In this document: piece by piece, positions 42,802-56,912 of the stretch
How positions within the stretch are numbered: position 1 is the first letter of the stretch
Layout: each line of letters starts with the position of its first letter
The notes under the pieces: model-generated
The model's database searches: none
What the model was told of the DNA's origin: nothing
The model's input: only the letters and a program-made list of their open reading frames with translations
Position numbers and translations under genes: made by a program
Source: Catenulispora acidiphila DSM 44928
Lineage (GTDB): Bacteria > Actinomycetota > Actinomycetes > Streptomycetales > Catenulisporaceae
Length of the DNA stretch: 64,000 bases
NCBI RefSeq assembly: GCF_000024025.1
Contig: NC_013131.1
Location: 9,094,229-9,158,228, forward strand
Direction: 5' to 3'

Positions 42802-43071
42802 CTACCGGCGCAGCCCCAGCTTCTCGATCAGCGCGCGGTACCGCACGATGTCGGTCTTCTGCAGGTACCCCTGCAGCCGCCGCCGCTGACCGACCAGCAG
42901 CAGCAGCCCGCGCCGGCTGTGGTGGTCGTGCTTGTGGAACTTCAGGTGCTCGGTGAGCTCGTTGATCCGGTACGTGAGCAGCGCGATCTGCACCTCCGGA
43001 GAACCGGTGTCACTCGGCCCCGTCCCGTAGTCATCAACGATCTTCTTCTTGGTAGCAGCGTCCAGAGACAC
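42802..43071 (-). CDS. rpsO: 30S ribosomal protein S15
   Basis: An 89-residue S15 of normal length, binding 16S rRNA early in 30S assembly. Clear family features are [40 protein letters not shown] and the ending [13 protein letters not shown]. It sits upstream of pnp as in most bacteria and is divergent from the type VII substrate genes with 150 bp between. Confidence 0.97.
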
Positions 43072-43221: not shown

Positions 43222-43653
43222 ATGAACACCAAAACCCACACCTTCCACACCGACCTAGATCACCTAGCAACCCTCCGCAAAGCCCTAGCCGACCTAGAAA
43301 CAACCCTCGCAGCCCCCCACGCCCACCACTGGCCCACCATCGACCCCACCCTCCACACAGGCCCAACGGCGTGGCGCACAGAGAAAAACGACACCGCCAC
43401 ATATGTATATGGACTGCTGAACGAAGCCGCCCCTCTAGGCGACACCCACGCAGACCTCGTCAGACGCCTCCAAGCCTGGTACCACCGCATCCAAGAAACG
43501 ATCACCGCCATGACAACCTCCGCAGAACGCACCCGCGCGACCTACTCCGCCGCCGACGAAGCAGTCGCAGCCGCCGCCCTACGAGTGGCGGAGGGCGCCG
43601 AGCGCGGCGGCAGGCTTGGGCTCGCCGGCAGCGCGGAGGGCGAAATGCCGTGA
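43222..43653 (+). CDS. Putative type VII secretion substrate/partner with YxxxD motif
   Basis: A 143-residue protein, mostly helical after the first 60 residues. Near the C-terminus it has a long helix, LVRRLQAWYHRIQETITAMT, and then Tyr108-x3-Asp112 in RTRATYSAADEAVAAAALRV, the YxxxD/E export motif of ESX substrates of the PE, EspC and WXG100-partner type. It has no signal peptide. GGGGAGG precedes ATG 43222. Its stop overlaps the start of the next gene by 4 bp, the arrangement of paired PE/PPE or Esx substrates. The family is not recognised with certainty; the substrate role rests on motif, coupling and position in an ESX locus. Confidence 0.6.
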   Translation: MNTKTHTFHTDLDHLATLRKALADLETTLAAPHAHHWPTIDPTLHTGPTAWRTEKNDTATYVYGLLNEAAPLGDTHADLVRRLQAWYHRIQETITAMTTSAERTRATYSAADEAVAAAALRVAEGAERGGRLGLAGSAEGEMP

Positions 43654-45017
43654 CCGAACCCCAGTTCAGCTACAGCGAACTCACCCTCGACGAACTACGC
43701 AGCATGGCCGCATCCCCGCAGGTCGGATCAATGCAGGCCATGCCGCAGTCCTTCCACGCCCTGGCCGACCGCGTCGGAGAGGTCGCGGACCTGCTTTCGC
43801 ACGCCCAAGCGGACTTGCCCAACTGGTGGAAGGGGCCGGCCGCGGAGCAGGCCGCGGCAACGCTGGGCCGCGCCGCCGCCGAAGCACGCGAGTTCCACGG
43901 AAGCGCGCTGGCCGCAGCCTCCGCAGTCAGCAGGTGCGCCCAGGTCGTCGCCGAGCAACAACATCAGATGATGAACGTCCCGGACGTGGCAGAGCCTGGC
44001 GTCACCGCCGTTGTGCAGCGCCCGGCGACACCTTTCGAAGCTCTCGAAGCCGCAAGGCAAGACGCCAGCTACCAAGCGGCGCACCAACAGGCAGTTCAGA
44101 CGGTGAACGGCATCGCCGCCCAATATGTGGAGACCCACGGTCAGCTGTCAAATATCACGACCATGTTCGGAGAAGACTTCACTCCCGTCGAGGAATCACG
44201 TCCACTCACGCCAGTTCCAGACATCCTCCACGGAAACCCCACGCCATCCACACCATCTAGCAAAGCTAGGAGTTCACAATTAACGGGACATCAAGCCGCG
44301 TCGTCATCATTAAGCGCGAACGCTGTCGGCACCACACCACGCAAGGATCAACTCTCTACAACATTTAGGTCGATTGATCATTCAAGCTCGCGCCTCAACC
44401 CGCACGAAGTCACAACTAGTCACGAATTCGAATCCGACTCAAACGATTTCGTCGGAGCCCACACATCCGAATCCCATAAAGGGCTTGGGGGCACTCAAAA
44501 AGTCGAACGAGGGTCGTCGTCGAGCATGACCCATCAAGATCCAGCGACTATCGCGAACACCGAGCCCGGAAACCTTCTCGAAGAGAAGACACCAACCAAA
44601 GCCCTCCGACAACCCATCCCAGAGGATGGGGTTTCTGAGGGCAGCGAAATCGCTCGGGCTCGAAAGCTTCCTGTTGCTGCCGCATCCACTCCTAATTCGA
44701 TCAACACAAAAACTCGCATTGCGGGCAAGCGCCCACTTGCAGATATCAGCGAAAATGTCTACGCCGCAGAACCAGCCGGAAGTGAAAACTTCAGGGCTAC
44801 ACCCCAAACTGCGTACCAGTCAGGGCTTGACGAAGTTGGCGATAACAGCGCCGCAATAGTCCCTCCCTATGGCAGTTTGGGATCCGTACATCGTACGCGG
44901 CAAGAGCGCAACCCTCGCCCCGCATACCTGAAAGAGCGAAAGAGTGCATGGCTTTCCGAAACAGCAGCAGCACCAGCAGACGGCGTAATCCGGCTAGACT
45001 GGCCCGAACAACACTAG
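43650..45017 (+). CDS. Putative PPE/WXG-like type VII substrate with long Ser/Thr-rich tail
   Basis: A 455-residue protein starting at GTG 43650 (GTGA overlap). Residues 1-130 look like a helical hairpin with WXG motif Trp60-Lys61-Gly62 between helices (SHAQADLPNWWKGPAAEQAA), as in WXG100 and PPE proteins. From about residue 175 the chain is Ser/Thr/Asn-rich, low complexity and encoded by visibly less G/C-rich DNA (44240 onward) than its neighbours. It has no signal peptide. Together with the preceding protein it could form an exported heterodimer. The last 70 bp overlap the mycosin gene in another frame. The tail resembles no domain I know. Confidence 0.6.
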   Translation: MTEPQFSYSELTLDELRSMAASPQVGSMQAMPQSFHALADRVGEVADLLSHAQADLPNWWKGPAAEQAAATLGRAAAEAREFHGSALAAASAVSRCAQVVAEQQHQMMNVPDVAEPGVTAVVQRPATPFEALEAARQDASYQAAHQQAVQTVNGIAAQYVETHGQLSNITTMFGEDFTPVEESRPLTPVPDILHGNPTPSTPSSKARSSQLTGHQAASSSLSANAVGTTPRKDQLSTTFRSIDHSSSRLNPHEVTTSHEFESDSNDFVGAHTSESHKGLGGTQKVERGSSSSMTHQDPATIANTEPGNLLEEKTPTKALRQPIPEDGVSEGSEIARARKLPVAAASTPNSINTKTRIAGKRPLADISENVYAAEPAGSENFRATPQTAYQSGLDEVGDNSAAIVPPYGSLGSVHRTRQERNPRPAYLKERKSAWLSETAAAPADGVIRLDWPEQH

Positions 45018-46060
45018 CCATCGCTTGCACTTTATTGGCAGGAAGCCTTGCAAGCGCATCGACGAGCAATCAATGGGCGCTTCGTTACCTTCGGGCAGAT
45101 TCAGTCTGGCAAATTTCACGTGGCGCTGGAGCTGAAATTGCGGTTATCGACACTGGCGTACAAGCAAACGCCGACGTCTCCAACCACCTTCTCCCTGGTG
45201 CAGATTTCTCAGACTCGACTACCACCAGCGTTGGCACCGGCCATCTCGATACAGATAGCTATGGACATGGCACTGGAGAGGCTAGCCTTATTGTCGGCGC
45301 CGGCGCGGAGACGCAGGGACTAGCTCCAGATTCAAACATTCTTCCGATTCGAGCTGTAAATGGATATGCCGTCGACCTCGCTCTCGGCATTACTCCAGCG
45401 ATCGAATTTGCAGTGTCCCATAAGGCGCGCGTGATCAATTTAGCGCTAGGCTACAAGCAAGATGATCCAGATATCCGTCGCGCAGTACAGGATGCACTCG
45501 ATAGCGATGTTGTCGTCGTAGCGGCTGTCGGCAACGACGGGAGCTCGCAGCAGTACTATCCGGCAGCACTTCCCGGAGTTGTTGGGGTGGGGGCTATTGA
45601 TAGTTCGGGAGAGGTGTGGGGTCAGTCGAATACGGGGGCTGATGTGGCTTTGGTGGCGCCGGGGGTGCATATTTTGCGGGATGATAATCGGGGGCGGGTG
45701 GGGTATTCGGATGGGACTTCGGAGGCTACTGCTTATGTTTCTGCTGCGGCGGCTTTGGTGCGGAGTGCGCATCCGGGGTGGAGCGCTGGGGAGGTTGTTG
45801 CGGCTTTGGAGGGGACGGCTGATAAGCCTGCTGGGATGCGGGGGGCTGTGCGGGATGATCGGTATGGGGCGGGGATTTTGGATGTGCTGGCGGCTGTGCG
45901 GTTGGCGGAGCCGCCGGTTGTTGGGGGGTCGGGGGCGGGTGTTGTGCGTGCGCGTCAAGGTGGGGGCAGCGGGTGGTTGTGGTGGGTTGTTGGTGGGGGT
46001 GCGGTGGCTGGCGGTGTGGTGATGCTGTTTGGGGTGCGGCGGTGGTTTCGGCGGGTGTGA
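44948..46060 (+). CDS. mycP: Mycosin (type VII secretion-associated S8 protease)
   Basis: A 370-residue membrane-anchored subtilase. It has an Arg-rich n-region and signal helix (TTLAIACTLLAGSLASA), then catalytic Asp68 (AVIDTG), His107 (SYGHGTG), oxyanion Asn196 (VGNDG) and Ser258 (DGTSEATAYVSAAAAL). A C-terminal membrane helix (WWVVGGGAVAGGVVMLFGV) with a basic tail follows. This is the mycosin architecture. The usual Phe after GTS is Glu here. ATG 44948 lies inside the end of the preceding gene. The DNA switches near 45580 to a strongly G/T-rich coding strand. Mycosins are needed for ESX complex stability and cleave some substrates. Confidence 0.85.
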   Translation: MAFRNSSSTSRRRNPARLARTTLAIACTLLAGSLASASTSNQWALRYLRADSVWQISRGAGAEIAVIDTGVQANADVSNHLLPGADFSDSTTTSVGTGHLDTDSYGHGTGEASLIVGAGAETQGLAPDSNILPIRAVNGYAVDLALGITPAIEFAVSHKARVINLALGYKQDDPDIRRAVQDALDSDVVVVAAVGNDGSSQQYYPAALPGVVGVGAIDSSGEVWGQSNTGADVALVAPGVHILRDDNRGRVGYSDGTSEATAYVSAAAALVRSAHPGWSAGEVVAALEGTADKPAGMRGAVRDDRYGAGILDVLAAVRLAEPPVVGGSGAGVVRARQGGGSGWLWWVVGGGAVAGGVVMLFGVRRWFRRV

Positions 46061-46256: not shown

Positions 46257-47610
46257 ATGGTCGACCCGCTGCGCCAGCTCACCGATGCCACGATCTGCCT
46301 TGCTGCGCTCGATCCGCTCTTGTACGACACCGGTGGCAGTCTGGCTGTGGCGCGGGCTGCTGAGCAGGTTTCGCGCGCTGCCGAGGGGGTGCTGGTCCGG
46401 TTGTGTCCGGACGTGGCATGACCGGGGTGATCCGGTGCAGACGCCGGGGACCACGCGCGAGGAGTTGTCGTGGCGCGCTACTGATGCCGCTCGGAAGGCC
46501 CTGATCGTTGATTTGGGGCGAAGTCGGGGTGATGCCGGGCGGCTGATAGCCACGGTCAAGGCGTTGCGGAAGGATCCGCCGACGGAGGACGCGCTGCGGA
46601 CCGGTGCCATCTCCGCGCCGCAGGCCAGGATTATTGCCGAGGCGCTGGCTGCGCTCGCGCATCAGCCGGATGAGGTTGTCGACGAGGTCCGCAGGGCACT
46701 GATCGCCAAGGCTATGGCCGGGGGTGCCGAGAAGCTGCGGGAACATGCTGAGGACGCGGCGCATCGTGTCGCGGCGGCGACTGTGCTCGGCCGGGCTCGG
46801 GCGGCGGAGGAGAAGCGCGGGTTCCATATGACGCCTGTGCTCGACGGCTATGTGCCCGGTGGGTTTCTTTCCACGACGGGTGGCGATGCGTTGCTGACGG
46901 CTTTGGACTCGCTCGCCGATCTGCGTGGGGAAGATGAGGCCGGGCAGGCTGATGGGGACGACCTCGGCAAGGCGCGGGCCGATGCGTTGGTGCGGCTGGC
47001 CGAGGATCGGCTTCGGGCGGGTGATCTGCCACAGCGGCATAACGGCCCGACGACCATGACCATCGTCATGCGAGCCGATACTGCTCAGGCGCTGCCGGGG
47101 GCGCCGGCGGCGCGCACGGGGCGTGGGCGGGCTGTGCCTGCGGCGGAGGCGCACATGTTGCGGTGCGAGGCCGCGTTGCGGGCAGTGCTGGTGGATGGTG
47201 ACGGCGAGATTCTGTGGCAGGGGCGCAAGCGGCGGCTCGCCACGCGCGCCCAGTACGAGGCCATGGCGGTGCGCGACGGGGGTTGTACGGCGCCGGGCTG
47301 CGATCGGCCGCCTCGTGAGTGCGATGCGCACCATGACATCCCGTGGGGTGCGGGTGGCCACACCGACGTCGATCAGATGCGGCTGTTGTGCCGACGGCAT
47401 CATCGCGAGCTGCATGACGAGCTCTGGCAACGGCAGCACGGTTGGCAGGACGCCGAGGTCCGGGCGCACAACGAGCAGCGTCGCTTCCAGCAGCCGCGGA
47501 GGCCTTGGTACGCGGACACGCCAGCCTGGTACGTCGGGCCGAGCCCGTGGCGCCCCGAAGTTCCGGAGACGACTGATGCTGCTGAGCTCGTGGGCGGTGA
47601 GGCGCGATGA
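46257..47610 (+). pseudogene. DUF222/HNH endonuclease-like gene with frameshift
   Basis: The N-terminus (ATG 46257 with GAAGGGA upstream, reading VDPLRQLTDATICLAALDPL onward) ends at a stop at 46419-46421. The rest continues in another frame to 47610, from about VQTPGTTREELSWRATDAAR through the DUF222 body to an HNH domain (DGGCTAPGCDRPPRECDAHH, then LLCRRHHRELHDELW). The break lies close to 46400-46421. If real, only a DUF222/HNH fragment from a GTG at 46437 could be made. This is a large, often multicopy family in actinobacteria with mobile-element-like behaviour; its function is unclear. It separates mycP from the ecc genes and looks like a late insertion. Confidence 0.75.
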
Positions 47611-47636: not shown

Positions 47637-49577
47637 TCAGCCCTTCAGGTTGCGCACCTGGCCGTACACGCCGAGGACAGCCATCAGCACCGGCAGTACG
47701 GCGAGGAAGACCGCGCCCTCGACCATGTCGACGGCGCGGGCCCAGCGCGGGGGCATGATCGGCTCGGAGGTGCCGCGACGGGGACGGATCGAGGCCAGAC
47801 CGAGGGCCAGCAGCGAGATCACGACCAGGAGGGGCGCCAGCCACATCGCGCGGAGGTTGGGGACGGCGTTGGCGGACATCGCACTGAAGGCGATGACCAG
47901 GCCGATCAGGCCGCTGACGGCGACGGCGAGGACCTGGGCGCGTTCGCGGAAGAGGCGGGCGCGGCAGAGGGTCACGCCGGAGACGAGGATCGCGAGCGCC
48001 TGCTCCCACACCGTGTGCTGGTCTTCCGGCGCGGTCTGCATGGCGCCGATCGGGATGACGAGGAGGGCGACGCAGAGCACGAGCAGCATGCCGATGCCCG
48101 CTGTCAGCCCGGTCAGGACGTCGAGGGTGCGGGCGACGCGCAGGCCGACGACGTAGTTGTTGACCGGGGAGCCTTCGAAGTCGCCGGGTTCGACGCCGCT
48201 GGTCGGAGGTTCGATGACGAAGCGAGCGACGGCCATCGCGGCGAACGGGAGGACCTCGATGGCCAGGGCGCAGACTGCGGCGACGATGGCGATGCCGGCC
48301 GCCGGGCTGGCCTTAATCAGCAGCAAGCCGATGCCCGCGAAGGTGGCGACCAGGCCCACGGTCGCGCCTGCCACCGGCACCGCGATCCGGCGGCCGAGGC
48401 CGAAGATCGCGGCGATGGCCATGACGAGGACGGTGACGGCGCCGGCGAGGAAGTGGGCGCGGCCGAAGCCGTGTCCGGCGGAAGCGTCGGTGGGCAGCAG
48501 GCCGGTGCCGGCGATGAAGGCATAAGGGAGCGACGACGCCGCGAGCACGGCGGCCGCGGTGTAGTCACGCTGGTGGTGCGCGCCTGTCGCCCACGCCATC
48601 GCCTCGGCGACGGTGGGCCAGGCTGCGAGGCTGCCGAGGCCACCGTCGCGGACGCTGTGCGCAGCGCGGGTGGCAGTGGCGCCGCCGAGAGAACGAGGTG
48701 GAACGCCAGTCGCAGTGGTGCCGCTCAAAGAACGAGCGGCGGTGCGGCGCGGGTCCGGCGCCTCCGACGCGAAGGAGGCGAGGTCGAAGCTCACGGTGGT
48801 GTCGGCGAAGCTGGGATCCGGATCGTCGGACGAGTAGCCGTGGCTGGAGTAGCCATTGTCGCCGGTGGGCTCACCGTATTCACGATCATAGGGAGATCGA
48901 TCGCGGCCGTAGGCGCTGTCGGCGTCGGGCTGATTCACTCGATCGTGTCCGCGGTTCCGTCGGCTTCCCTGGGGCGGCCCGGAGGGAGCTCCTGCTCCCG
49001 CGCCGTCTCCGTACCCGTAGTAACTGCCGCGGCCGACGGCGGACTGGTCGTACCGCGCCTGGCGGATCGCGAGCCCGAACAGCACCAGCGTGATCACGCC
49101 TGCGACGATGCCCTTCCAGCCGTGGAACGTCCCGGTGTTGGAGAACCAGAGCACCACCGCGCCGAGTGTCGAGGCGACGGTAACCACCGCGAGAGCCGTC
49201 GCGCGCAAGGCGGCTGTCGTCCACTGCGAACCACCGGCGATGACCGCTTCGGCGACGACGTCCGCGATGTCGTCGTGGACGGCGGCTTCGGGGACGTCGT
49301 CGGCCGGGCGCAGGCGGAGCACGCCGCCGTGGAGCACGCCCTGGTCGGTCAGGGAGGCCGCGGTGTCCAGCGGGACGCCGTCCGCGCCGGTGAGAACGTA
49401 GCCGGTCAGGGCCGCCGCGAGGGCGGCCGGGGTGGGGAGCGGATCGCCGACCAGCCGGAGGAGCTCCGGGAGGAGTTCGGCGAGCGGCACGTCCTCGGGG
49501 AGCGCCACATCGACACGGCGGGTGGGCGCGACGACGGTGACCCGGCAGTGGCCGGCGACCCCGGAACCTGCAGTCAT
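47637..49577 (-). CDS. eccD: Type VII secretion integral membrane protein EccD
   Basis: A 646-residue EccD. Residues 1-95 form the ubiquitin-like YukD domain (HCRVTVVAPTRRVDVALPED onward), followed by about eleven membrane helices. EccD forms the membrane vestibule of the ESX complex. Between helices 2 and 3 there is an unusual cytoplasmic or periplasmic loop of roughly 150 residues rich in Gly, Ser, Asp and Tyr (YYGYGDGAGAGAPSGPPQGS through SYSS-like repeats). Typical EccD is about 470-510 residues, so this loop accounts for the extra length. It is divergent from eccC by 43 bp. Confidence 0.88.
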   Translation of the reverse strand: MTAGSGVAGHCRVTVVAPTRRVDVALPEDVPLAELLPELLRLVGDPLPTPAALAAALTGYVLTGADGVPLDTAASLTDQGVLHGGVLRLRPADDVPEAAVHDDIADVVAEAVIAGGSQWTTAALRATALAVVTVASTLGAVVLWFSNTGTFHGWKGIVAGVITLVLFGLAIRQARYDQSAVGRGSYYGYGDGAGAGAPSGPPQGSRRNRGHDRVNQPDADSAYGRDRSPYDREYGEPTGDNGYSSHGYSSDDPDPSFADTTVSFDLASFASEAPDPRRTAARSLSGTTATGVPPRSLGGATATRAAHSVRDGGLGSLAAWPTVAEAMAWATGAHHQRDYTAAAVLAASSLPYAFIAGTGLLPTDASAGHGFGRAHFLAGAVTVLVMAIAAIFGLGRRIAVPVAGATVGLVATFAGIGLLLIKASPAAGIAIVAAVCALAIEVLPFAAMAVARFVIEPPTSGVEPGDFEGSPVNNYVVGLRVARTLDVLTGLTAGIGMLLVLCVALLVIPIGAMQTAPEDQHTVWEQALAILVSGVTLCRARLFRERAQVLAVAVSGLIGLVIAFSAMSANAVPNLRAMWLAPLLVVISLLALGLASIRPRRGTSEPIMPPRWARAVDMVEGAVFLAVLPVLMAVLGVYGQVRNLKG

Positions 49578-49620: not shown

Positions 49621-52600
49621 GTGAGCACGACCTCTGTCACACGTGGACCGCGTCGCCCGTCACCGGAAATGCCGAGCGGCACCGTGGTCCTGCAGCCGCC
49701 GCCGGACGTACCGCGCGGGGGCGGGGACGGACATTGGGCCCTGAACCTGCTGCCGATAGTGGCCGGGCTGGGATCGGTGGTGTTCTTCTTCATGCCGGGC
49801 GCCAATGCCCTGATGATGATCGTCGGGGGTCTGACGTTCGCGTCCAGCCTGGTGTTCGGGGCGGTGACGGCGGTGCGGCAGCGCAACGGGGGCACCAGCC
49901 GCCTCGTCGACGCCCGGCGCGACTATCTGAGGCACCTCGCGCAGATTCGCTCGGAAGTGGTCGCGGCAACGCGGGCCCAGAAGGCGGCGGCTCGCTATGC
50001 GAATCCAGATCCGGACACGTTGTGGAGCCTGGTCGCGCTGCGCGAACGCCTGTGGGAGCGGCGGCAATCCGATCCCGACTTCCTGACAGTGCGGGTCGGA
50101 CGCGGCACCGCGCAGCTCGCGACTCAGCTCGTGCCGCCAGAGACGGCTCCGATGCAGGAGCTGGAGCCGACGTGCGCGGACGCCCTGCGCCGCCTGCTCG
50201 CCGTCCACGGCACGCTGTCGGACCAGCCGGTCGCGATCCCGCTCCGGTCGATCGCGCGCCTGGTGGTGAGCGGCGGACCGGGACCGTCGGCGATGTGCGC
50301 ACTCCTGGCGCAGCTCGTGACGTTCCACTCCCCCGACGACCTCAAGATCTGCGTGGTCGCGGACGGCGACCGGGTCCAGCGCTGGGATTGGCTGAAATGG
50401 CTGCCGCACGCCCAGCACCCGAGCGCGCAGGATGCCGCGGGTCCACAGCGCATGATCTACGACGACAAGACGGACGCCGAGACAGGACTCGAACAGCTGC
50501 TGGCCGAACGGCCTCGGTTCACGGGGATCGTCTCGCTGATCGACCGTCCGCACGTGATCGTCATCCTCGACACCACATCGGCGCCATCGTCGGACTCGTA
50601 CACCTCTGCCTCCGCCTCGTCCTCAGCCGCGTCGTCCGCGCCGCTGATCTCCGACGCCGGCCTGCTCGGAGTGACGATCTTCGAGATGGCCACCGCGCCC
50701 GCTCAGCGCCCGAAGCGAAACCAGATGGCGCTGCACATCGCCCACGACCGCACCGCGACCGTGGAGCTGCCGGACGCCCGTCCCGGGTCCGACGACCGTG
50801 CCTTCCCGATCCGGGTCGACACGCTGACGCTGGGGCAGGCCGAAGGGCTGGCCCGCCAGCTGGCTCCGCTCCGGATGTCGGCGGGAGGCGGGGACGAGCC
50901 GCTGCTGTCAGCGCTGGAGTTCACCGACCTGCTCGGAATCGAGGACGCGGCCGAGATCTATGCGCCGAGCTTGTGGCAGCGTGCCTCCGCCTCGCCGCAC
51001 GACCGGTTGCGCGCGCCGATCGGCGTCGGCGAGGACGGCCAGCCCGTCGTGCTGGACCTGAAGGAGGCGGCGCTCGGCGGGATGGGCCCGCACGGCTTGT
51101 GCGTCGGTGCCACCGGCTCGGGCAAGTCCGAACTCTTACGCAGCCTGGTCGCCGCGCTGGCCCTGACGCATTCGAGCGAGCAGGTGAACTTCATCCTGGC
51201 CGACTTCAAGGGCGGTGCGACGTTCGCCGGTCTGGCGACGCTGCCTCACGTGGCCGCGGTGATCACCAACCTCGCGGACGACCTGACGTTGGTGGACCGG
51301 ATGCGCGACGCCCTGACCGGCGAGCTGAACCGCCGCCAGGAGCTGCTGAAGCGCGCCGGAAACGTGAAGAACGTGCACGACTACGAGAGGGCCCGTGCGG
51401 GCAACGCGGATCTGGTTCCGCTGCCGTCGCTGCTGGTGGTCGTCGACGAGTTCTCCGAACTGCTGACCGCGCGGCCGGAGTTCATCGAGATGTTTCTGCA
51501 GATCGGCCGCATCGGGCGGTCCCTCGGCGTGCATCTCCTGTTGGCCTCGCAGCGATTGGAGGAAGGACGGCTGCGCGGACTCGACACGTTCCTGTCCTAC
51601 CGGCTGGGACTGAAGACGTTCTCGGCCGCCGAGTCGCGGGCCGTGCTCGGCGTCTCCGACGCACACAGCCTGCCGAGCGTGCCGGGATCCGGGTACCTGA
51701 AGTACGACAACGAGTCGATGATCCGGTTCAAGGCCGCGTACGTCTCCGGGCCCTATGGAAAGGCCAAGGCGCCCGCGGTTCCGGCGGCGCGCAGCGCGCT
51801 CCACCGGCGGCCGGTCTGGTTCACCGCGCTGCACCAGGCGCCGGTGGTGGCGCTGCGCGCCGGGGTCGCCGAGCCGGATCTGAGCGGGGCGACGTCGGTG
51901 GTCGCGCTGGATGCGGCTACCGGGTATCAGAAGACGTCTGCGGCGGTGCTCGACGTGATCGTAGACCGGCTGACGGGCTTCGGTCCGGCGGCGCACCGGG
52001 TCTGGCTGCCGCCGCTGGCCGAGCCGCCGACGCTTGAGTCGCTGCTGTCCGGCATCACCGCCACCCCGGACCGGGGACTCTCGGCCACGCGGTGGCGCGG
52101 GACCGGTCTCCTGCGCGTTCCGGTGGGCATCGTCGACCGGCCGGCGCATCAGCGTCAGGACCCGCAGGTCCTGGACCTGTCCGGCGCCGGCGGGCATGTG
52201 CTGGTCGCCGGCGGGCCGCGGTCCGGGAAGTCGACGACGCTGCGGACGCTGATGTTCGTACTGGCGCTGACGCACACGCCAGCGGAGGCGCGGTTCCTCG
52301 TCGTGGATCTCGGAGGCGGGACGCTCGCGCCGTTGACCGGGGTGCCGCATGTCTCGGCGGTCGCCGGGCGGGCGAATCCCGATCTGGTGCGGCGGATGGT
52401 CGCCGAGGCGGTCGGCGTGCTCGACCGGCGCGAGGCTGCCGGAGGGACGCAGGCCGGGACGGATCAGGGCCACGTGTTCCTGGTCATCGACGGATGGTCG
52501 GCGTTCCGGGACGAGTTCGAGACGTTGGAGCAGGACGTCGTGGACATCGCACGGCGCGGGCTCGGGTTCGGCGTGCATCTGCTGGCGTCGACCGGGCGCT

Positions 52601-53715
52601 GGGCCGATGTCCGGGCGCAGCTGAAGGATGCCATCGGGACACGGTTGGAGCTGCGGCTCGGCGATCCGATGGAGTCCGAGATGGATCGGCGGGCGGCGGC
52701 GGAGGTGCCGCAAGGCGTGCCGGGCCGCGGCGTGACGCGGCAGAAGCTGCACACGCTCGGGGCGGTGACGGCTGGGCCGCCGGAGGAGTTGGCTTCGGCG
52801 ATCGCGAAGGCGTGGCAGGGACCGGCGGCGCCGCGGGTGCGGATGCTGCCGTCGCAGATCGCTTATGACGACGTGGTCTCGCGCGATCGGAGCGGCGCCG
52901 GGGTGGTGATCGGGATCGACGAGGCCCGGTTGCTGCCGGTGGCGCTGGACTTCGAGGCCGAGCCGCACTTCGTGGTGTTCGGGGAGGGGGAGGCTGGAAA
53001 GTCGAACTTCCTCCGGATGGTGGCGACAGGGCTGGTCGAGGAGGTGACGGCGGGGCGGCTCGAGGCGCGGTTCATGGTGATCGACTACCGCAGGAGTCTG
53101 ATGGGGGTCGTGCCGGAGGAGTTGAGCGCCGGGTACGCGGTCGCCGGGCCGGCCGCACTGTCGATGATGTCGCAGCTGGCCGAGGCGTTGCGGGACCGGT
53201 TGCCGGGACCGGAGGTGACGGCGGAACAGTTGCGGACGCGGAGTTGGCGGACCGGGAAGGACGTGTACGTGTTCGTCGACGACTACGACTTGGTGGCGTC
53301 GCCGACGATGAATCCGCTGGGTCCGCTGGTGGAGTTGCTGCCGTACGCGCGGGATGTGGGGCTGCATGTGGTGATCGCGCGGCACAGCGGCGGCGCCGGG
53401 CGGGCGATGTTCGATCCGGTGCTGCAGAAGCTGCGGGATTTGAGCACGGCGGGGTTGCTGCTCTCGGGCGACCGGGAAGAGGGTCCGCTGGTCGGTGGGG
53501 CGCGGCCGAGTCGGCAGCCGGTGGGGCGGGGGCAGTTGGTGCGGCGGCGGGGTGGGGCGGTGCTGGTGCAGACCGCTTTGGTGCCGGAGCCGCGGTGGGG
53601 TGAGGACGGGACGGGTGTTGTGGATCGCGCGGATCGCGAGGGAGATGGCGCGGGTGTGAGAGGGGTCGATGAGGGCGTTTCGGTAGGCGCGCGAGAGGGC
53701 CTGAGGAGCGAGTGA
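49621..53715 (+). CDS. eccC: Type VII secretion ATPase EccC (single-chain, three ATPase domains)
   Basis: A 1364-residue FtsK/SpoIIIE-type motor. It has two membrane helices (LLPIVAGLGSVVFFFMPGA and LMMIVGGLTFASSLVFGAV), a stalk/DUF domain and three ATPase modules. Walker A motifs are GATGSGKSE (496-504), GGPRSGKST (864-872) and GEGEAGKSN (1121-1129). Module 1 has an intact Walker B (LLVVVDEFSELL); module 2 has FLVIDGWSAF without the catalytic Glu, and module 3 VFVDDYDLVA, in line with known substrate-binding, non-hydrolysing modules. It fuses what mycobacterial ESX-1 splits into EccCa and EccCb. The last 50 residues are a charged Gly/Arg/Asp tail. Confidence 0.92.
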   Translation: MSTTSVTRGPRRPSPEMPSGTVVLQPPPDVPRGGGDGHWALNLLPIVAGLGSVVFFFMPGANALMMIVGGLTFASSLVFGAVTAVRQRNGGTSRLVDARRDYLRHLAQIRSEVVAATRAQKAAARYANPDPDTLWSLVALRERLWERRQSDPDFLTVRVGRGTAQLATQLVPPETAPMQELEPTCADALRRLLAVHGTLSDQPVAIPLRSIARLVVSGGPGPSAMCALLAQLVTFHSPDDLKICVVADGDRVQRWDWLKWLPHAQHPSAQDAAGPQRMIYDDKTDAETGLEQLLAERPRFTGIVSLIDRPHVIVILDTTSAPSSDSYTSASASSSAASSAPLISDAGLLGVTIFEMATAPAQRPKRNQMALHIAHDRTATVELPDARPGSDDRAFPIRVDTLTLGQAEGLARQLAPLRMSAGGGDEPLLSALEFTDLLGIEDAAEIYAPSLWQRASASPHDRLRAPIGVGEDGQPVVLDLKEAALGGMGPHGLCVGATGSGKSELLRSLVAALALTHSSEQVNFILADFKGGATFAGLATLPHVAAVITNLADDLTLVDRMRDALTGELNRRQELLKRAGNVKNVHDYERARAGNADLVPLPSLLVVVDEFSELLTARPEFIEMFLQIGRIGRSLGVHLLLASQRLEEGRLRGLDTFLSYRLGLKTFSAAESRAVLGVSDAHSLPSVPGSGYLKYDNESMIRFKAAYVSGPYGKAKAPAVPAARSALHRRPVWFTALHQAPVVALRAGVAEPDLSGATSVVALDAATGYQKTSAAVLDVIVDRLTGFGPAAHRVWLPPLAEPPTLESLLSGITATPDRGLSATRWRGTGLLRVPVGIVDRPAHQRQDPQVLDLSGAGGHVLVAGGPRSGKSTTLRTLMFVLALTHTPAEARFLVVDLGGGTLAPLTGVPHVSAVAGRANPDLVRRMVAEAVGVLDRREAAGGTQAGTDQGHVFLVIDGWSAFRDEFETLEQDVVDIARRGLGFGVHLLASTGRWADVRAQLKDAIGTRLELRLGDPMESEMDRRAAAEVPQGVPGRGVTRQKLHTLGAVTAGPPEELASAIAKAWQGPAAPRVRMLPSQIAYDDVVSRDRSGAGVVIGIDEARLLPVALDFEAEPHFVVFGEGEAGKSNFLRMVATGLVEEVTAGRLEARFMVIDYRRSLMGVVPEELSAGYAVAGPAALSMMSQLAEALRDRLPGPEVTAEQLRTRSWRTGKDVYVFVDDYDLVASPTMNPLGPLVELLPYARDVGLHVVIARHSGGAGRAMFDPVLQKLRDLSTAGLLLSGDREEGPLVGGARPSRQPVGRGQLVRRRGGAVLVQTALVPEPRWGEDGTGVVDRADREGDGAGVRGVDEGVSVGAREGLRSE

Positions 53716-54036: not shown

Positions 54037-55434
54037 TCAGGAAGAAGTCGCAGCAGGCAGTTCAGCCTTAGCCGGGTCGAGCGCTGGCCCGAGCGGCACC
54101 AGGCGCAGCCATGGCGACGGCACCTCGGTGGAGGCGATTCCGTCGTAGCCCAGGCGCGTTGCTGCTGCGCCGACTAGTTCGTAGCGGTGGCCGGTGTCGG
54201 TGACGAGGTAGTCGGGGGCTGTTGCGGGGTCGCTGCCGGATTCGCGGACGATGGTTCCGTGGCTGGAGCGCACTACTACGGTCTCGGCGGGTGTGGGGAG
54301 CGGTTGCGGGAGTGATGGGCGCAGCGCTAGCTGCATGTGGGCGCGGCCTTGTTGGTCGAAGACGCCGGAGAAGGTGGCGCACAGGATGGCGGCGGTGCCG
54401 GTGGGGGTCTGCGAGGGTGCCGTGAAGTGCGGGGGGAGTGCGGGCCAGGTCAGGGTTTGGGAGGCTGCCGTTGTCACCAGCATGTCTGGGGTCAGTTTGC
54501 CGGGTGGGAGGGTGGTCTCCGTGAACTTGTATTCGGGCAGGCGGGGGTCGCGGCGGTAGAGGTCGTACATGGTGGGTGTCACGGTGGCGATGCCGTCGCC
54601 GGTCACGAGGTAGTAGTTCGACACGCTCCCGTCGGGGCCGAGGGTGCGGCCGAACATGCCGATGCGGTTGAAGTCGTTGGGGGCGGGGCGGGGGTCGGGG
54701 CCGCCGTAGTGGCCGGAGATTGTCGGGATGCCGAGGACGTCGCCTGCTGACAGGCCACTTAGCCAGGTCGTTGGGACGTGACGCGGCTTTACCGCGCCGG
54801 TTCCGAAGGCTGCCGCGACCGAGGTGCGGTCTCCGACGCGGTACTTCAGACCGTCCTGGACCACCCATTGCTGGCCGGACTCGTCCTGGACCAGGAGTGA
54901 GTCAGGGCCCGACAACACGCCGGGGGATGTGGGGCCGCCCACTGGGAAGCCCACTTCGATCGTGGTCATGCCCGTTGGCATTGCGCAGGCTGTCCAGTCG
55001 TTCAGGTCCAGGTTGGCTGCGGCCGGTGGGGAGGCGGGTACCTTCGTGAGCCCGACGGCCGGGCCGGCGTGCTGCAGATATGGCGCCAGCTGCGAGGGCT
55101 TGGGCTGCGCGACTTTGGGCGTCGGGCCGAGCATCAGCTGTGCCGACATGGAGTTCAGGATCGGGTGCAGTCTGCCGCCGAGCATCACGTATTCCGTGCC
55201 CGAGCCGTCGGCGATCAGGTCCTTCTGCCACTCGGTCTTCGGCTGGGGGTGCAGATAGCCGATGACGCCGGCTGTGCCGAGGGCGACGACGACCACGATC
55301 GTGGCGACGAACATGGCCCGAAAGGGACGCGGCACGCCTTCGCCGACGCCGCCCGCACCCGGCCGCAACAGCGCCCCGATGACCCGGCGCCGCGTGAACT
55401 CTGCCGCGGTCAGCTGCTCCTTTCGCGTCGCCAT
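54037..55434 (-). CDS. eccB: Type VII secretion protein EccB
   Basis: A 465-residue EccB. It has the N-terminal cytoplasmic segment EQLTAAEFTRRRVIGALLRP, one membrane helix (AMFVATIVVVVALGTAGVIG) and an extracellular domain with the family motifs GYLHPQPKTEW, TEYVMLGGRLHPILNSMSAQ and SGPDSLLVQDESGQQWVVQDG. EccB caps the ESX membrane complex on the outer face. ATG 55434 lies only 20 bp from the divergent eccE start. Cys residues in TACAMPTG and ILCATFSG may form the conserved disulfide. Confidence 0.92.
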   Translation of the reverse strand: MATRKEQLTAAEFTRRRVIGALLRPGAGGVGEGVPRPFRAMFVATIVVVVALGTAGVIGYLHPQPKTEWQKDLIADGSGTEYVMLGGRLHPILNSMSAQLMLGPTPKVAQPKPSQLAPYLQHAGPAVGLTKVPASPPAAANLDLNDWTACAMPTGMTTIEVGFPVGGPTSPGVLSGPDSLLVQDESGQQWVVQDGLKYRVGDRTSVAAAFGTGAVKPRHVPTTWLSGLSAGDVLGIPTISGHYGGPDPRPAPNDFNRIGMFGRTLGPDGSVSNYYLVTGDGIATVTPTMYDLYRRDPRLPEYKFTETTLPPGKLTPDMLVTTAASQTLTWPALPPHFTAPSQTPTGTAAILCATFSGVFDQQGRAHMQLALRPSLPQPLPTPAETVVVRSSHGTIVRESGSDPATAPDYLVTDTGHRYELVGAAATRLGYDGIASTEVPSPWLRLVPLGPALDPAKAELPAATSS

Positions 55435-55454: not shown

Positions 55455-56912
55455 ATGCGGACCTTCGCTGGCATGGGTCTGGTGCTGGCGGGCCAAGTCG
55501 CCGCCGTGGCCGGACTGGCCGCCGCCTGGCGCCTGCGAACCCGGCGCAAGCAGCTGGAAGCGGCCGTCGCCGACACCCCGGCGGCGGCGTTGAGATTCAG
55601 CCGTGCGGGTGTCGTAGGGCGGAAAGATCTGCGCGTTGCAGGACAGAATGATCAATACGTCGCAGGGCAGGAAGATCGACACGTCGCAGGGCAGGAAGAT
55701 CGTTACTCAGGCAAAGATCGGAAGAAAGAACTGAAGGGCTCGAAGCCGAGCATTCCCGATCACGTCAGCGCGGTTCTGGAGATCGAGCCGGTCGACCCTG
55801 TCCTGCCCTCGGCTGACCCGCCGACGCCGATCCCGTCGCACATCCTGTCCGGGCTGCGCGACGATCCGCTGCTCGGGTTGGCCGATGTCCGGCTGATCCA
55901 GCACGTTCAGCCGATCGGCGCCGGGCTTCCGGAGCGCTCGCAGGCCGGCGCGTCGTACCAGAGCCTGAATCAGGACGTCGCGCACCGCCTCGGCACCGAT
56001 CCGATCCCGGCCACCCGCCTGACCTGGCTGGCATTCCGCCTGGAACTGCCCGGCAGCCGCCGCCATGCCCTGGCCGCCCGCGCCGCCGGTCCGATCCTGG
56101 CGCGTGGCGGCGGGATCACGGGAGCGAACCGGACGCTCGACAAGGCGGCACGCACCGCATCGGCGAAACTTGCCCTCGCCGGCTACCGGGCCATCACCCT
56201 CGCCGAGGACGACTACCGGCCTGACTTCGCCAGTGATCTGGCCGAGGCTCATAGCTCCCCCAACGCCGACGACAGAGCCAAAGTCGCGGCCGCTCCCGGC
56301 GGCGTGCTGATGGGCGTCGACCCAGCACATCGGCCAGTCACGCTCGGCTTGTTCCACCGCACTCCCCTGAGCACCGCCGTCATCGGCAGCCTTCACCTCG
56401 CCCAGATACTGGCTCTACGCTGCGCCGCGATCGGTGCCCGAGTGATCATCGAAACCGCGCGCCAAGACGAGTGGGACACAGTCCTGCTCTACTCCGGCCT
56501 CGACATGGCACGCCTGGCCGTGCAACCAGTGGGACGCCCCGTCGGCAATCCCGGATGGCCCGCGCCGAGCATGGCCACGCCGTTGCTCGTCCTGCGGGAC
56601 TGCGGTGCCCGTCCGCCGTACGCGGAAGTCCCACGCGGACCCTGGACCTCGATCGTCACCCTCCTCCCCTACTTCGACCCGCGCACCGCCGGCTACCTCC
56701 GCGACGCGGACCTCGTCGGCCTGCAACGGATGCCGCGCGAGGAGGCGGCGATGGCGCGCCATGTGCTGTCGCTGCCTGACAAGGACACCGCCGCGCTGGC
56801 GGATCTGCCCGATGCGATGGTCCTGTGGCGTTCGCGGAAAAGGACCATGCGCTACTGCGAGTTCACTCCGACGAAGTGGGAAGAGACCTTTCTCGGCGAG
56901 CCCGCGCGGTGA
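55455..56912 (+). CDS. eccE: Type VII secretion protein EccE
   Basis: A 485-residue EccE-like protein. It has one N-terminal membrane helix (GLVLAGQVAAVAGLAAAWRL) rather than the usual two, a repeat-bearing spacer (VAGQNDQY, VAGQEDRH, VAGQEDRY) and the EccE soluble domain (LTWLAFRLELPGSRRHALAA through VGVDPAHRPVTLGLFHRTPL). EccE is the peripheral, periplasm-facing or membrane-edge component of ESX complexes. No further T7SS gene lies downstream; the next gene is a housekeeping peptidase, so eccE closes the locus. Confidence 0.8.
   Translation: MRTFAGMGLVLAGQVAAVAGLAAAWRLRTRRKQLEAAVADTPAAALRFSRAGVVGRKDLRVAGQNDQYVAGQEDRHVAGQEDRYSGKDRKKELKGSKPSIPDHVSAVLEIEPVDPVLPSADPPTPIPSHILSGLRDDPLLGLADVRLIQHVQPIGAGLPERSQAGASYQSLNQDVAHRLGTDPIPATRLTWLAFRLELPGSRRHALAARAAGPILARGGGITGANRTLDKAARTASAKLALAGYRAITLAEDDYRPDFASDLAEAHSSPNADDRAKVAAAPGGVLMGVDPAHRPVTLGLFHRTPLSTAVIGSLHLAQILALRCAAIGARVIIETARQDEWDTVLLYSGLDMARLAVQPVGRPVGNPGWPAPSMATPLLVLRDCGARPPYAEVPRGPWTSIVTLLPYFDPRTAGYLRDADLVGLQRMPREEAAMARHVLSLPDKDTAALADLPDAMVLWRSRKRTMRYCEFTPTKWEETFLGEPAR
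55625..55722 (+). repeat. 24-bp tandem coding repeats in eccE
   Basis: Two near-exact 24-bp units (acgtcgcagggcaggaagat...) at 55657-55680 and 55681-55704 are flanked by degenerate copies, encoding (Y/H)VAGQEDR octapeptides in the spacer after the membrane helix. Confidence 0.75.

What the first reader, a model, noticed from the sequence alone, without database searches (positions are those of the whole stretch)
43222..45017. Coupled YxxxD and WXG protein pair as likely new type VII substrates
The first protein ends with a helix carrying Tyr108-x3-Asp112; the second has Trp60-Lys61-Gly62 between helices and a long Ser/Thr-rich tail. Their genes overlap by 4 bp and lie directly before mycosin. 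This mimics PE/PPE or EsxA/EsxB pairs, yet neither matches those families obviously and no ordinary 100-residue WXG100 genes are present. They may be an undescribed actinomycete substrate pair dedicated to this ESX machine.
Basis: partly seen in the sequence, partly recalled or inferred. Interest (0 to 1): 0.75.

Follow-up and report, generated by a model that had tools for sequence, protein, structure and literature searches.

The report
Partner proteins for type VII secretion
Two neighbouring genes in a soil bacterium encode what look like partner proteins exported by a type VII secretion machine; they belong to a family spread through several groups of actinobacteria, and the larger partner ends in a conserved tail motif that recurs beside such machines.

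Summary
P1 (43222-43653, 143 aa) carries Y108-x3-D112. P2 (43650-45017, 455 aa) carries W60-K61-G62 between two predicted helices. The genes overlap by 4 bp, and P2 overlaps the mycosin gene by 70 nt. The genome is a Catenulispora.

The pair is not private to this locus. Profile comparison links it to gene pairs in other genera (P2 E=7e-11, P1 E=3.6e-6) with the same order: small protein, WxG protein, mycosin. Three ESX loci of another family (probably Streptomyces), tied to rpsO like the window's, hold such a triad; in two of them P2 also has the tail motif. WxG is invariant in 39 of 39 P2 N-domains; aromatic-x3-acid is kept in 37 of 37 P1 proteins.

P2 is a WXG100/PPE-type helical domain, a fast-evolving disordered linker, and a C-terminal tag under strong purifying selection. 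Similar tags end other long proteins beside ecc genes in many actinomycetes, some with a different N-terminus; each of this genome's four EccB loci has one.

Best explanation: a PE/PPE- or EspB-like pair exported by the adjacent machine, its tail a docking and/or mycosin-processing module. Export, pairing and tag function are inferred. New variant of a known kind.

The parts
43222..43653 (+). P1, small partner (143 aa), YxxxD protein
   Evidence: pN/pS 0.27-0.56 over residues 8-120 against 5 relatives
43543..43557 (+). Y108-S-A-A-D112 motif in the C-terminal helix of P1
   Evidence: aromatic-x3-acid in 37 of 37 homologues
43650..43653 (+). GTGA overlap of P1 stop and P2 start
   Evidence: 6 of 6 Catenulispora pairs
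43650..45017 (+). P2, WxG partner (455 aa): helical N-domain, disordered linker, C-terminal tag
43683..44165 (+). PPE/WXG100-like helical domain of P2 (residues 12-172)
   Evidence: helices 13-20, 23-59, 63-108, 128-171; family profile matches EsxA 2vrz at 7.4e-12; pN/pS 0.15-0.21 over residues 1-175
43827..43835 (+). W60-K61-G62 in the turn between helices 23-59 and 63-108
   Evidence: 39 of 39
44175..44861 (+). Ser/Thr-rich disordered linker of P2, fast evolving, GC 0.54
   Evidence: pLDDT under 50; pN/pS 0.74-0.97, alignment uncertain
44916..44990 (+). C-terminal tag R423-P-A-Y-L-K-E429...W434...P442...V446
   Evidence: R423, E429, W434, P442 invariant in the 34 P2 rows chosen for having the tag; pN/pS 0.07-0.21 over residues 420-446
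44948..46060 (+). mycosin-like subtilase; first 70 nt overlap the end of P2
   Evidence: Peptidase_S8 1.1e-37; TIGR03921 209 bits, below its cut-off of 278.75; catalytic D, H, S present
47637..49577 (-). eccD
   Evidence: PF19053 4.6e-46 and YukD 4.7e-21
49669..53715 (+). eccC (start by a simple gene caller)
   Evidence: PF01580, three stretches, 2.1e-77
54037..55434 (-). eccB
   Evidence: PF05108 3.1e-94
55455..56912 (+). eccE-like
   Evidence: PF11203 E=0.00043, below cut-off
42802..43071 (-). rpsO, synteny anchor upstream of P1
   Evidence: single match in 13 of 13 relatives searched; the name is recalled from size, place and context

Best explanation
P1 and P2 form a PE/PPE-type heterodimer that is a substrate of the ESX machine encoded beside them. 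P1 (EspC/PE/EsxB-like) supplies the YxxxD part and P2 (PPE/WXG100-like) the WxG part of the composite export signal read by EccC. Coupled translation (4 bp overlap) keeps the partners together. P2's helical domain is followed by a disordered linker and a conserved C-terminal tag. Exported with the dimer, the tail is held at the machine by the tag and/or trimmed by the mycosin whose gene overlaps P2, as MycP1 trims the C-terminal region of EspB. Shown: gene layout, motif conservation, domain homology, selection on domain and tag, tag-ESX linkage. Inferred: dimerisation, export, EccC recognition, cleavage, tag docking.
For: Motifs fixed in 39 of 39 and 37 of 37. P1's extended pattern HxxxD/ExxhxxxH (defined in PMC3935865, passages seen) in 26 of 37. 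P2 family profile against PDB: EsxA 7.4e-12, other WXG100 proteins down to 3e-8, EspB 0.053, PPE4 0.35, PPE41 0.45. Of 34 P2 members, 14 match Pfam WXG100 and 7 match PPE (best 4.5e-8) at E<=0.01. Foldseek ranks PPE41 chains 1-4 (E 0.015-0.071). Catenulispora-only profiles find the other genera's pairs: P2 7e-11, P1 3.6e-6. Pairs outside the training rows found in ESX loci L135, L136, L176, L177, L181. Selection: domain 0.15-0.21, linker 0.74-0.97, tag 0.07-0.21. EspB, a PE/PPE fusion carrying both motifs, is cleaved by MycP1 in its C-terminal domain (PMC9811218, passages seen).
Against: The window proteins alone match no Pfam family above cut-off. The structural match is not decisive: no Foldseek hit at E<=0.001, and PPE chains (Z 10.5-10.8) tie with unrelated BAR domains (up to 11.1). 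The P1 model is weak and matches nothing of type VII; the P1 profile's best PDB hit is an ESAT-6-like protein at only E=0.0027. hhalign probability for P1 is 87.5. Sister genera have this ESX locus without the triad (L131-L133) and triads away from ecc genes. Tags occur without a mycosin neighbour (14 of 16 weaker hits, 1.5 kb flanks), and loss of the tag is not tied to loss of mycosin catalytic residues, so tag and mycosin need not act together.
Confidence: 0.68

Rival explanations
1. P2 is not exported but is an EspK-like adaptor: its WxG domain with P1 contacts EccC while the long linker and C-terminal tag recruit another substrate or the mycosin.
For: EspK also has an N-terminal WxG part, an unstructured low-complexity linker and a C-terminal interaction domain, and delivers EspB to the machine (PMC9811218 passages). 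A linker that changes fast between two conserved ends fits a tether. Tagged proteins often sit next to a separate Esx pair.
Against: P2 has only a short tag, not a folded C-terminal domain (though the model is weak there). P1 carries the YxxxD/E export motif in the position typical of substrates.
Confidence: 0.18
2. The pair is a structural part of the ESX envelope complex: exported only as far as the cell envelope, where the P2 domain oligomerises as EspB does and the tag anchors it to an Ecc protein.
For: 33 of 44 strong tag hits lie within 20 kb of eccB and 49 of 66 eccB rows have a tag within 20 kb in the 51 tag-positive genomes. [quoted passage not shown]
Against: The association count includes training rows and genomes picked for having the tag. 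Tagged proteins are absent from many ESX loci, and several tagged proteins lack the P2 domain.
Confidence: 0.1
3. Motif coincidence: helical proteins with chance WxG and YxxxD, unrelated to secretion.
For: Helical bundles match many folds; the window proteins match no curated family above cut-off.
Against: Motif invariance across homologues, placement in ESX loci of several families, and profile homology to WXG100 proteins.
Confidence: 0.04

Closest known systems
EspB of mycobacterial ESX-1 (PE-PPE fusion, C-terminal region cleaved by MycP1)
   Same: WxG and YxxxD/E signal, PPE-type domain, long C-terminal tail, mycosin connection
   Different: Two genes instead of one chain; the P2 tag was not found in solved EspB entries (no EspB hit for the tag profile; the archive holds constructs of varying length); sequence link to EspB only E=0.053
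PE/PPE pairs (PE25-PPE41, PE5-PPE4, PE8-PPE15)
   Same: Adjacent genes, small YxxxE partner plus WxG partner, fold ranking of P2
   Different: P1 has no PE match; the window P2 has no PPE match at E<=0.01 although 7 of 34 relatives do
EspC/EspA of ESX-1 (names recalled; EspC motif quoted in PMC3935865)
   Same: P1's YSAADEAV resembles EspC's YSEADEAW
   Different: Pfam EspC only at E 0.04-0.06 in two relatives, below cut-off; none at E<=0.01
EsxA/EsxB WXG100 pair
   Same: P2's N-domain profile matches EsxA at 7.4e-12
   Different: 455 aa with linker and tag; the partner has an aromatic-x3-acid motif but no WxG; in other genomes both kinds of pair lie in the same locus
EspK
   Same: WxG domain, disordered linker, C-terminal interaction element
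   Different: No folded C-terminal domain predicted; has a small YxxxD partner

Membership tests
WXG100 / WXG-PPE superfamily (P2) | Helical hairpin with WxG in the turn | tested here: met
   helices 23-59 and 63-108 around W60-G62; 39 of 39; profile to EsxA 7.4e-12
WXG100 family proper (P2) | About 100 residues and a PF06013/TIGR03930 match above cut-off | tested here: not met
   455 aa; window P2 TIGR03930 E=0.21, 11.8 bits against 44.85
PPE family (P2) | PF00823 domain | tested here: not met
   No match for the window P2 at E<=0.01; 7 of 34 relatives match, best 4.5e-8
PPE family (P2) | PPE fold | tested here: inconclusive
   PPE41 ranks 1-4 in Foldseek, but VIA Z ties with BAR domains
PE / EspC / EsxB partner (P1) | YxxxD/E in a C-terminal helix | tested here: met
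   aromatic-x3-acid 37 of 37, strict Tyr 29 of 37
PE or EspC family (P1) | Curated family match | tested here: not met
   No Pfam match for P1; no PE or EspC match among 37 members at E<=0.01
Type VII substrate pair | Encoded with ecc genes or mycosin | tested here: met
   Window and loci
Type VII substrate pair | Heterodimer formation | not testable with these tools
   No complex prediction offered
Type VII substrate pair | EccC-dependent export | not testable with these tools
   Needs the bench
EspB-type mycosin substrate (P2) | Cleavage of the C-terminal region by mycosin | not testable with these tools
   Only gene adjacency and overlap seen

The most novel reading that the evidence does not exclude
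The C-terminal tag ([YW]-L-x-E-[DE]...W...P-x-V-[IL]) is an unreported short docking signal of actinomycete type VII systems: a tail shared by one or more long proteins of many ESX loci, whatever their N-terminus, that binds a common core component. The Catenulispora pair would be the stripped-down form in which a PE/PPE-like couple with that tail, plus its own mycosin, replaces the usual EsxA/EsxB pair of the locus.
Probability: 0.38. Interest if true: 0.75.

Novelty: new variant of a known kind. Interest (0 to 1): 0.55.

Why it matters
PE and PPE proteins were reported as absent outside Mycobacterium in 2006 (PMC1660551, passages seen), and later pe/ppe genes were listed for some other mycolic-acid bacteria (PMC4791881, passages seen). 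A PE/PPE-like pair built into ESX loci of Catenulispora and, probably, Streptomyces would give these pairs relatives in harmless, tractable soil bacteria and bear on how they arose from EsxA/EsxB. The tag gives a testable handle on an open question: what besides YxxxD/E and WxG sends a substrate to its machine, and what mycosins recognise.

Tried and rejected
Single-sequence searches of Pfam, NCBIfam and PDB with P1 and P2 gave nothing usable. Single-sequence genome searches saw only the genus; profiles were needed.

Full-length family profiles over 296 genomes of the class found few genomes (P2 profile 7, P1 profile 9, own included); the weak P1 hits (E 3e-6 to 1e-3) in other families were not followed and may be chance.

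Fold search with P1 gave two meaningless hits. The tag profile finds no type VII protein in the PDB, only superoxide dismutases at E about 0.5.

Idea that tag loss goes with a dead mycosin: rejected. The five mycosins beside tag-less P2s (L064, L065, L071, L075, L135) keep D, H, N and S. Idea that tag and mycosin always go together: rejected. The 14 strongest hits of the first tag profile all have a mycosin downstream, but 9 of the 14 are training rows (5 of 5 new ones); of 16 weaker hits only 2 do. Idea that each tagged protein is a P2: rejected. Many lack the N-domain. Idea that the tag is conserved only because it overlaps mycosin: rejected. The overlap covers only the last part in the window, and the tag is kept in triads whose genes do not overlap.

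Of 42 gene-before-mycosin pairs listed, 29 had the tag by pattern; the mycosin sites were picked by me from the top of a list ranked by likeness to the window mycosin, which favours triads. The 13 others: five P2-like proteins without the tag (L063, L064, L065, L071, L075; L063 without a P1) and eight other genes, some of them eccB; L063 and seven of those were left out of later alignments. L047's P2 was split by the gene caller; only its N-terminal piece was used, and it was left out.

Papers: ten searches. Tag strings occur in no held paper. The library lacks most subscription journals; the Streptomyces coelicolor ESX papers I recall were not seen.

Full report
Where it lies. The window is part of a single 10,467,782-base contig. 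Two same-genus genomes are Catenulispora by name: contigs with the same match and length are C. pinisilvae NH11 and a Catenulispora MAG. The size fits my recall of C. acidiphila DSM 44928. The order is rpsO(-), P1(+), P2(+), mycosin(+), a broken HNH gene, eccD(-), eccC(+), eccB(-), eccE-like(+).

The pair in the genus. P1 and P2 are each found in 6 of 9 other same-genus genomes, and in none of 50 more distant relatives by single-sequence search. Around five of those six, rpsO, P1, P2 and mycosin follow each other; four of these continue to eccD and eccC, one contig ends in the mycosin. The sixth lies on a 3,137-base contig. The 4 bp GTGA overlap is kept in 6 of 6 pairs including the window. 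Selection differs along P2: pN/pS 0.15-0.21 in residues 1-175, 0.74-0.97 in the linker (synonymous sites near saturation, alignment uncertain), 0.07-0.21 over the tag; P1 core 0.27-0.56.

Beyond the genus. Mycosin searches led to other loci. Sister genera of the same family have a 135-138 aa YxxxD/E protein, a 478-508 aa WxG protein and a mycosin in that order (L021-L023), with no ecc match on those stretches. Their rpsO-linked ESX loci hold eccD, eccC, a mycosin, eccB and eccE but neither partner (L131-L133). Of 42 gene-before-mycosin pairs listed (sister-genus ones included) 29 have the tag; this sample is biased towards window-like mycosins. Three rpsO-linked ESX loci read in full or nearly so show eccB, mycosin, P1, P2, mycosin and two Esx-like genes (L134, L135, L136 with L137; L135 has an unrelated insert between the first mycosin and P1). 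P2 carries the tag in L134 and L136 and lacks it in L135. In a third family two loci read Esx, Esx, P1, P2, mycosin (L176, L181; the tag of L181 is weak).

Homology. Catenulispora-only profiles against the other genera: P2 E=7e-11, probability 97; P1 E=3.6e-6, probability 87.5. The P2 family profile matches WXG100 structures (EsxA 7.4e-12) and, weakly, EspB 0.053, PPE4 0.35, PPE41 0.45. Of 34 P2 members 14 match Pfam WXG100, 7 WXG100_2 and 7 PPE at E<=0.01; the window P2 matches none of them. P1's profile matches one ESAT-6-like protein at 0.0027, then coiled coils at 0.1 and above; DUF2563 is met by 4 of 37.

Structure. With only four sequences allowed, P2 gave four helices over residues 13-171 with WKG in a turn, and no confident structure after residue 173. 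Foldseek ranks PPE41 first to fourth with weak E-values. The second aligner gives PPE chains Z 10.5-10.8 but BAR domains up to 11.1, so the fold match supports PPE only together with sequence and context. P1's model is poor and found nothing relevant.

The tag. In 30 aligned tails the residues R, E, W and P are invariant (rows were chosen for the tag). A broader profile finds 51 of 296 class genomes and 18 of 115 genera. In those 51 genomes 33 of 44 strong hits lie within 20 kb of an eccB match, 9 are on contigs without one and 2 are far; 49 of 66 eccB rows have a tag within 20 kb. Some of these hits are training rows. One family (code f20) gave no training row: 7 of its 10 hits lie within 20 kb of eccB and 3 on contigs without eccB. 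In this genome the four tags lie 5-12 kb from the four eccB genes (all four are training rows). Their N-termini differ: a P2-type domain is clear in the window and in L138 (E=1e-19, preceded by a 271 aa protein overlapping it by 4 bp), marginal in L140 (0.0019) and absent in L139. Tagged proteins of f20 and others are 900-1250 aa without the P2 domain, and there the tag lies 30-75 residues before the end. The tag is thus a portable tail of ESX-linked proteins.

Mycosins. In a quick tree of 74 mycosins the tag-adjacent label needs 11 changes against 24.8 in shuffles (0 of 500 as low). A clade of 17 (support 96) holds most eccB-adjacent mycosins and none beside a tag. The window's mycosin groups with those of L021-L023 (12 rows, support 100: 9 beside a tag, 3 orphan Catenulispora mycosins). 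The tool warns of long branches. The window locus therefore carries the substrate-side mycosin and not the eccB-side one; this is inference from the tree.

Mechanism. YxxxD/E and WxG together form the known bipartite signal, and EspB, a PE/PPE fusion, is cut in its C-terminal region by MycP1 (PMC9811218, passages). By analogy P1-P2 is a split EspB-like substrate. I hold 0.68 for the secreted pair. For the tag I favour docking to a core component (about 0.4) over being chiefly a mycosin recognition site (about 0.3), because many tagged proteins have no mycosin beside them.

Verdict. Observation confirmed; interpretation partly supported. A new variant of a known kind, with the portable tag as the most novel part.

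Noticed in passing
46257-47610 (+): An HNH-endonuclease-type gene between mycosin and eccD reads in two frames against its intact relative in L016 (residues 1-48 in one frame, 44-451 in another). Intact copies exist in relatives.
   Followed up: partly
L138 (own genome 3448001-3468000), L139 (9812001-9832000), L140 (9888001-9900000): Three further EccB loci in the same genome, each with one long protein ending in a tag; L138 has a second P1/P2-like pair with a 4 bp overlap.
   Followed up: partly
L077 and L053: Mycosin genes in tandem (four in L077, three in L053) downstream of one tagged P2.
   Followed up: no
L064, L065, L071, L075, L135: P2 homologues in probable Streptomyces that have lost the tag while the mycosin keeps its catalytic residues; their mycosins form one clade.
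   Followed up: partly
L024, L027, L028: Orphan mycosins in Catenulispora with no partner gene or ecc match nearby, close kin of the window's mycosin.
   Followed up: no
44175-44861: The P2 linker has GC 0.54 against 0.70 for the window, with atypical codon use, so a codon-based gene caller missed P2.
   Followed up: no
L139 15780-20000 and L140 7831-12000: Very long ORFs (over 1,380 aa) behind the tagged proteins of two other ESX loci, possibly large type VII effectors; not searched.
   Followed up: no
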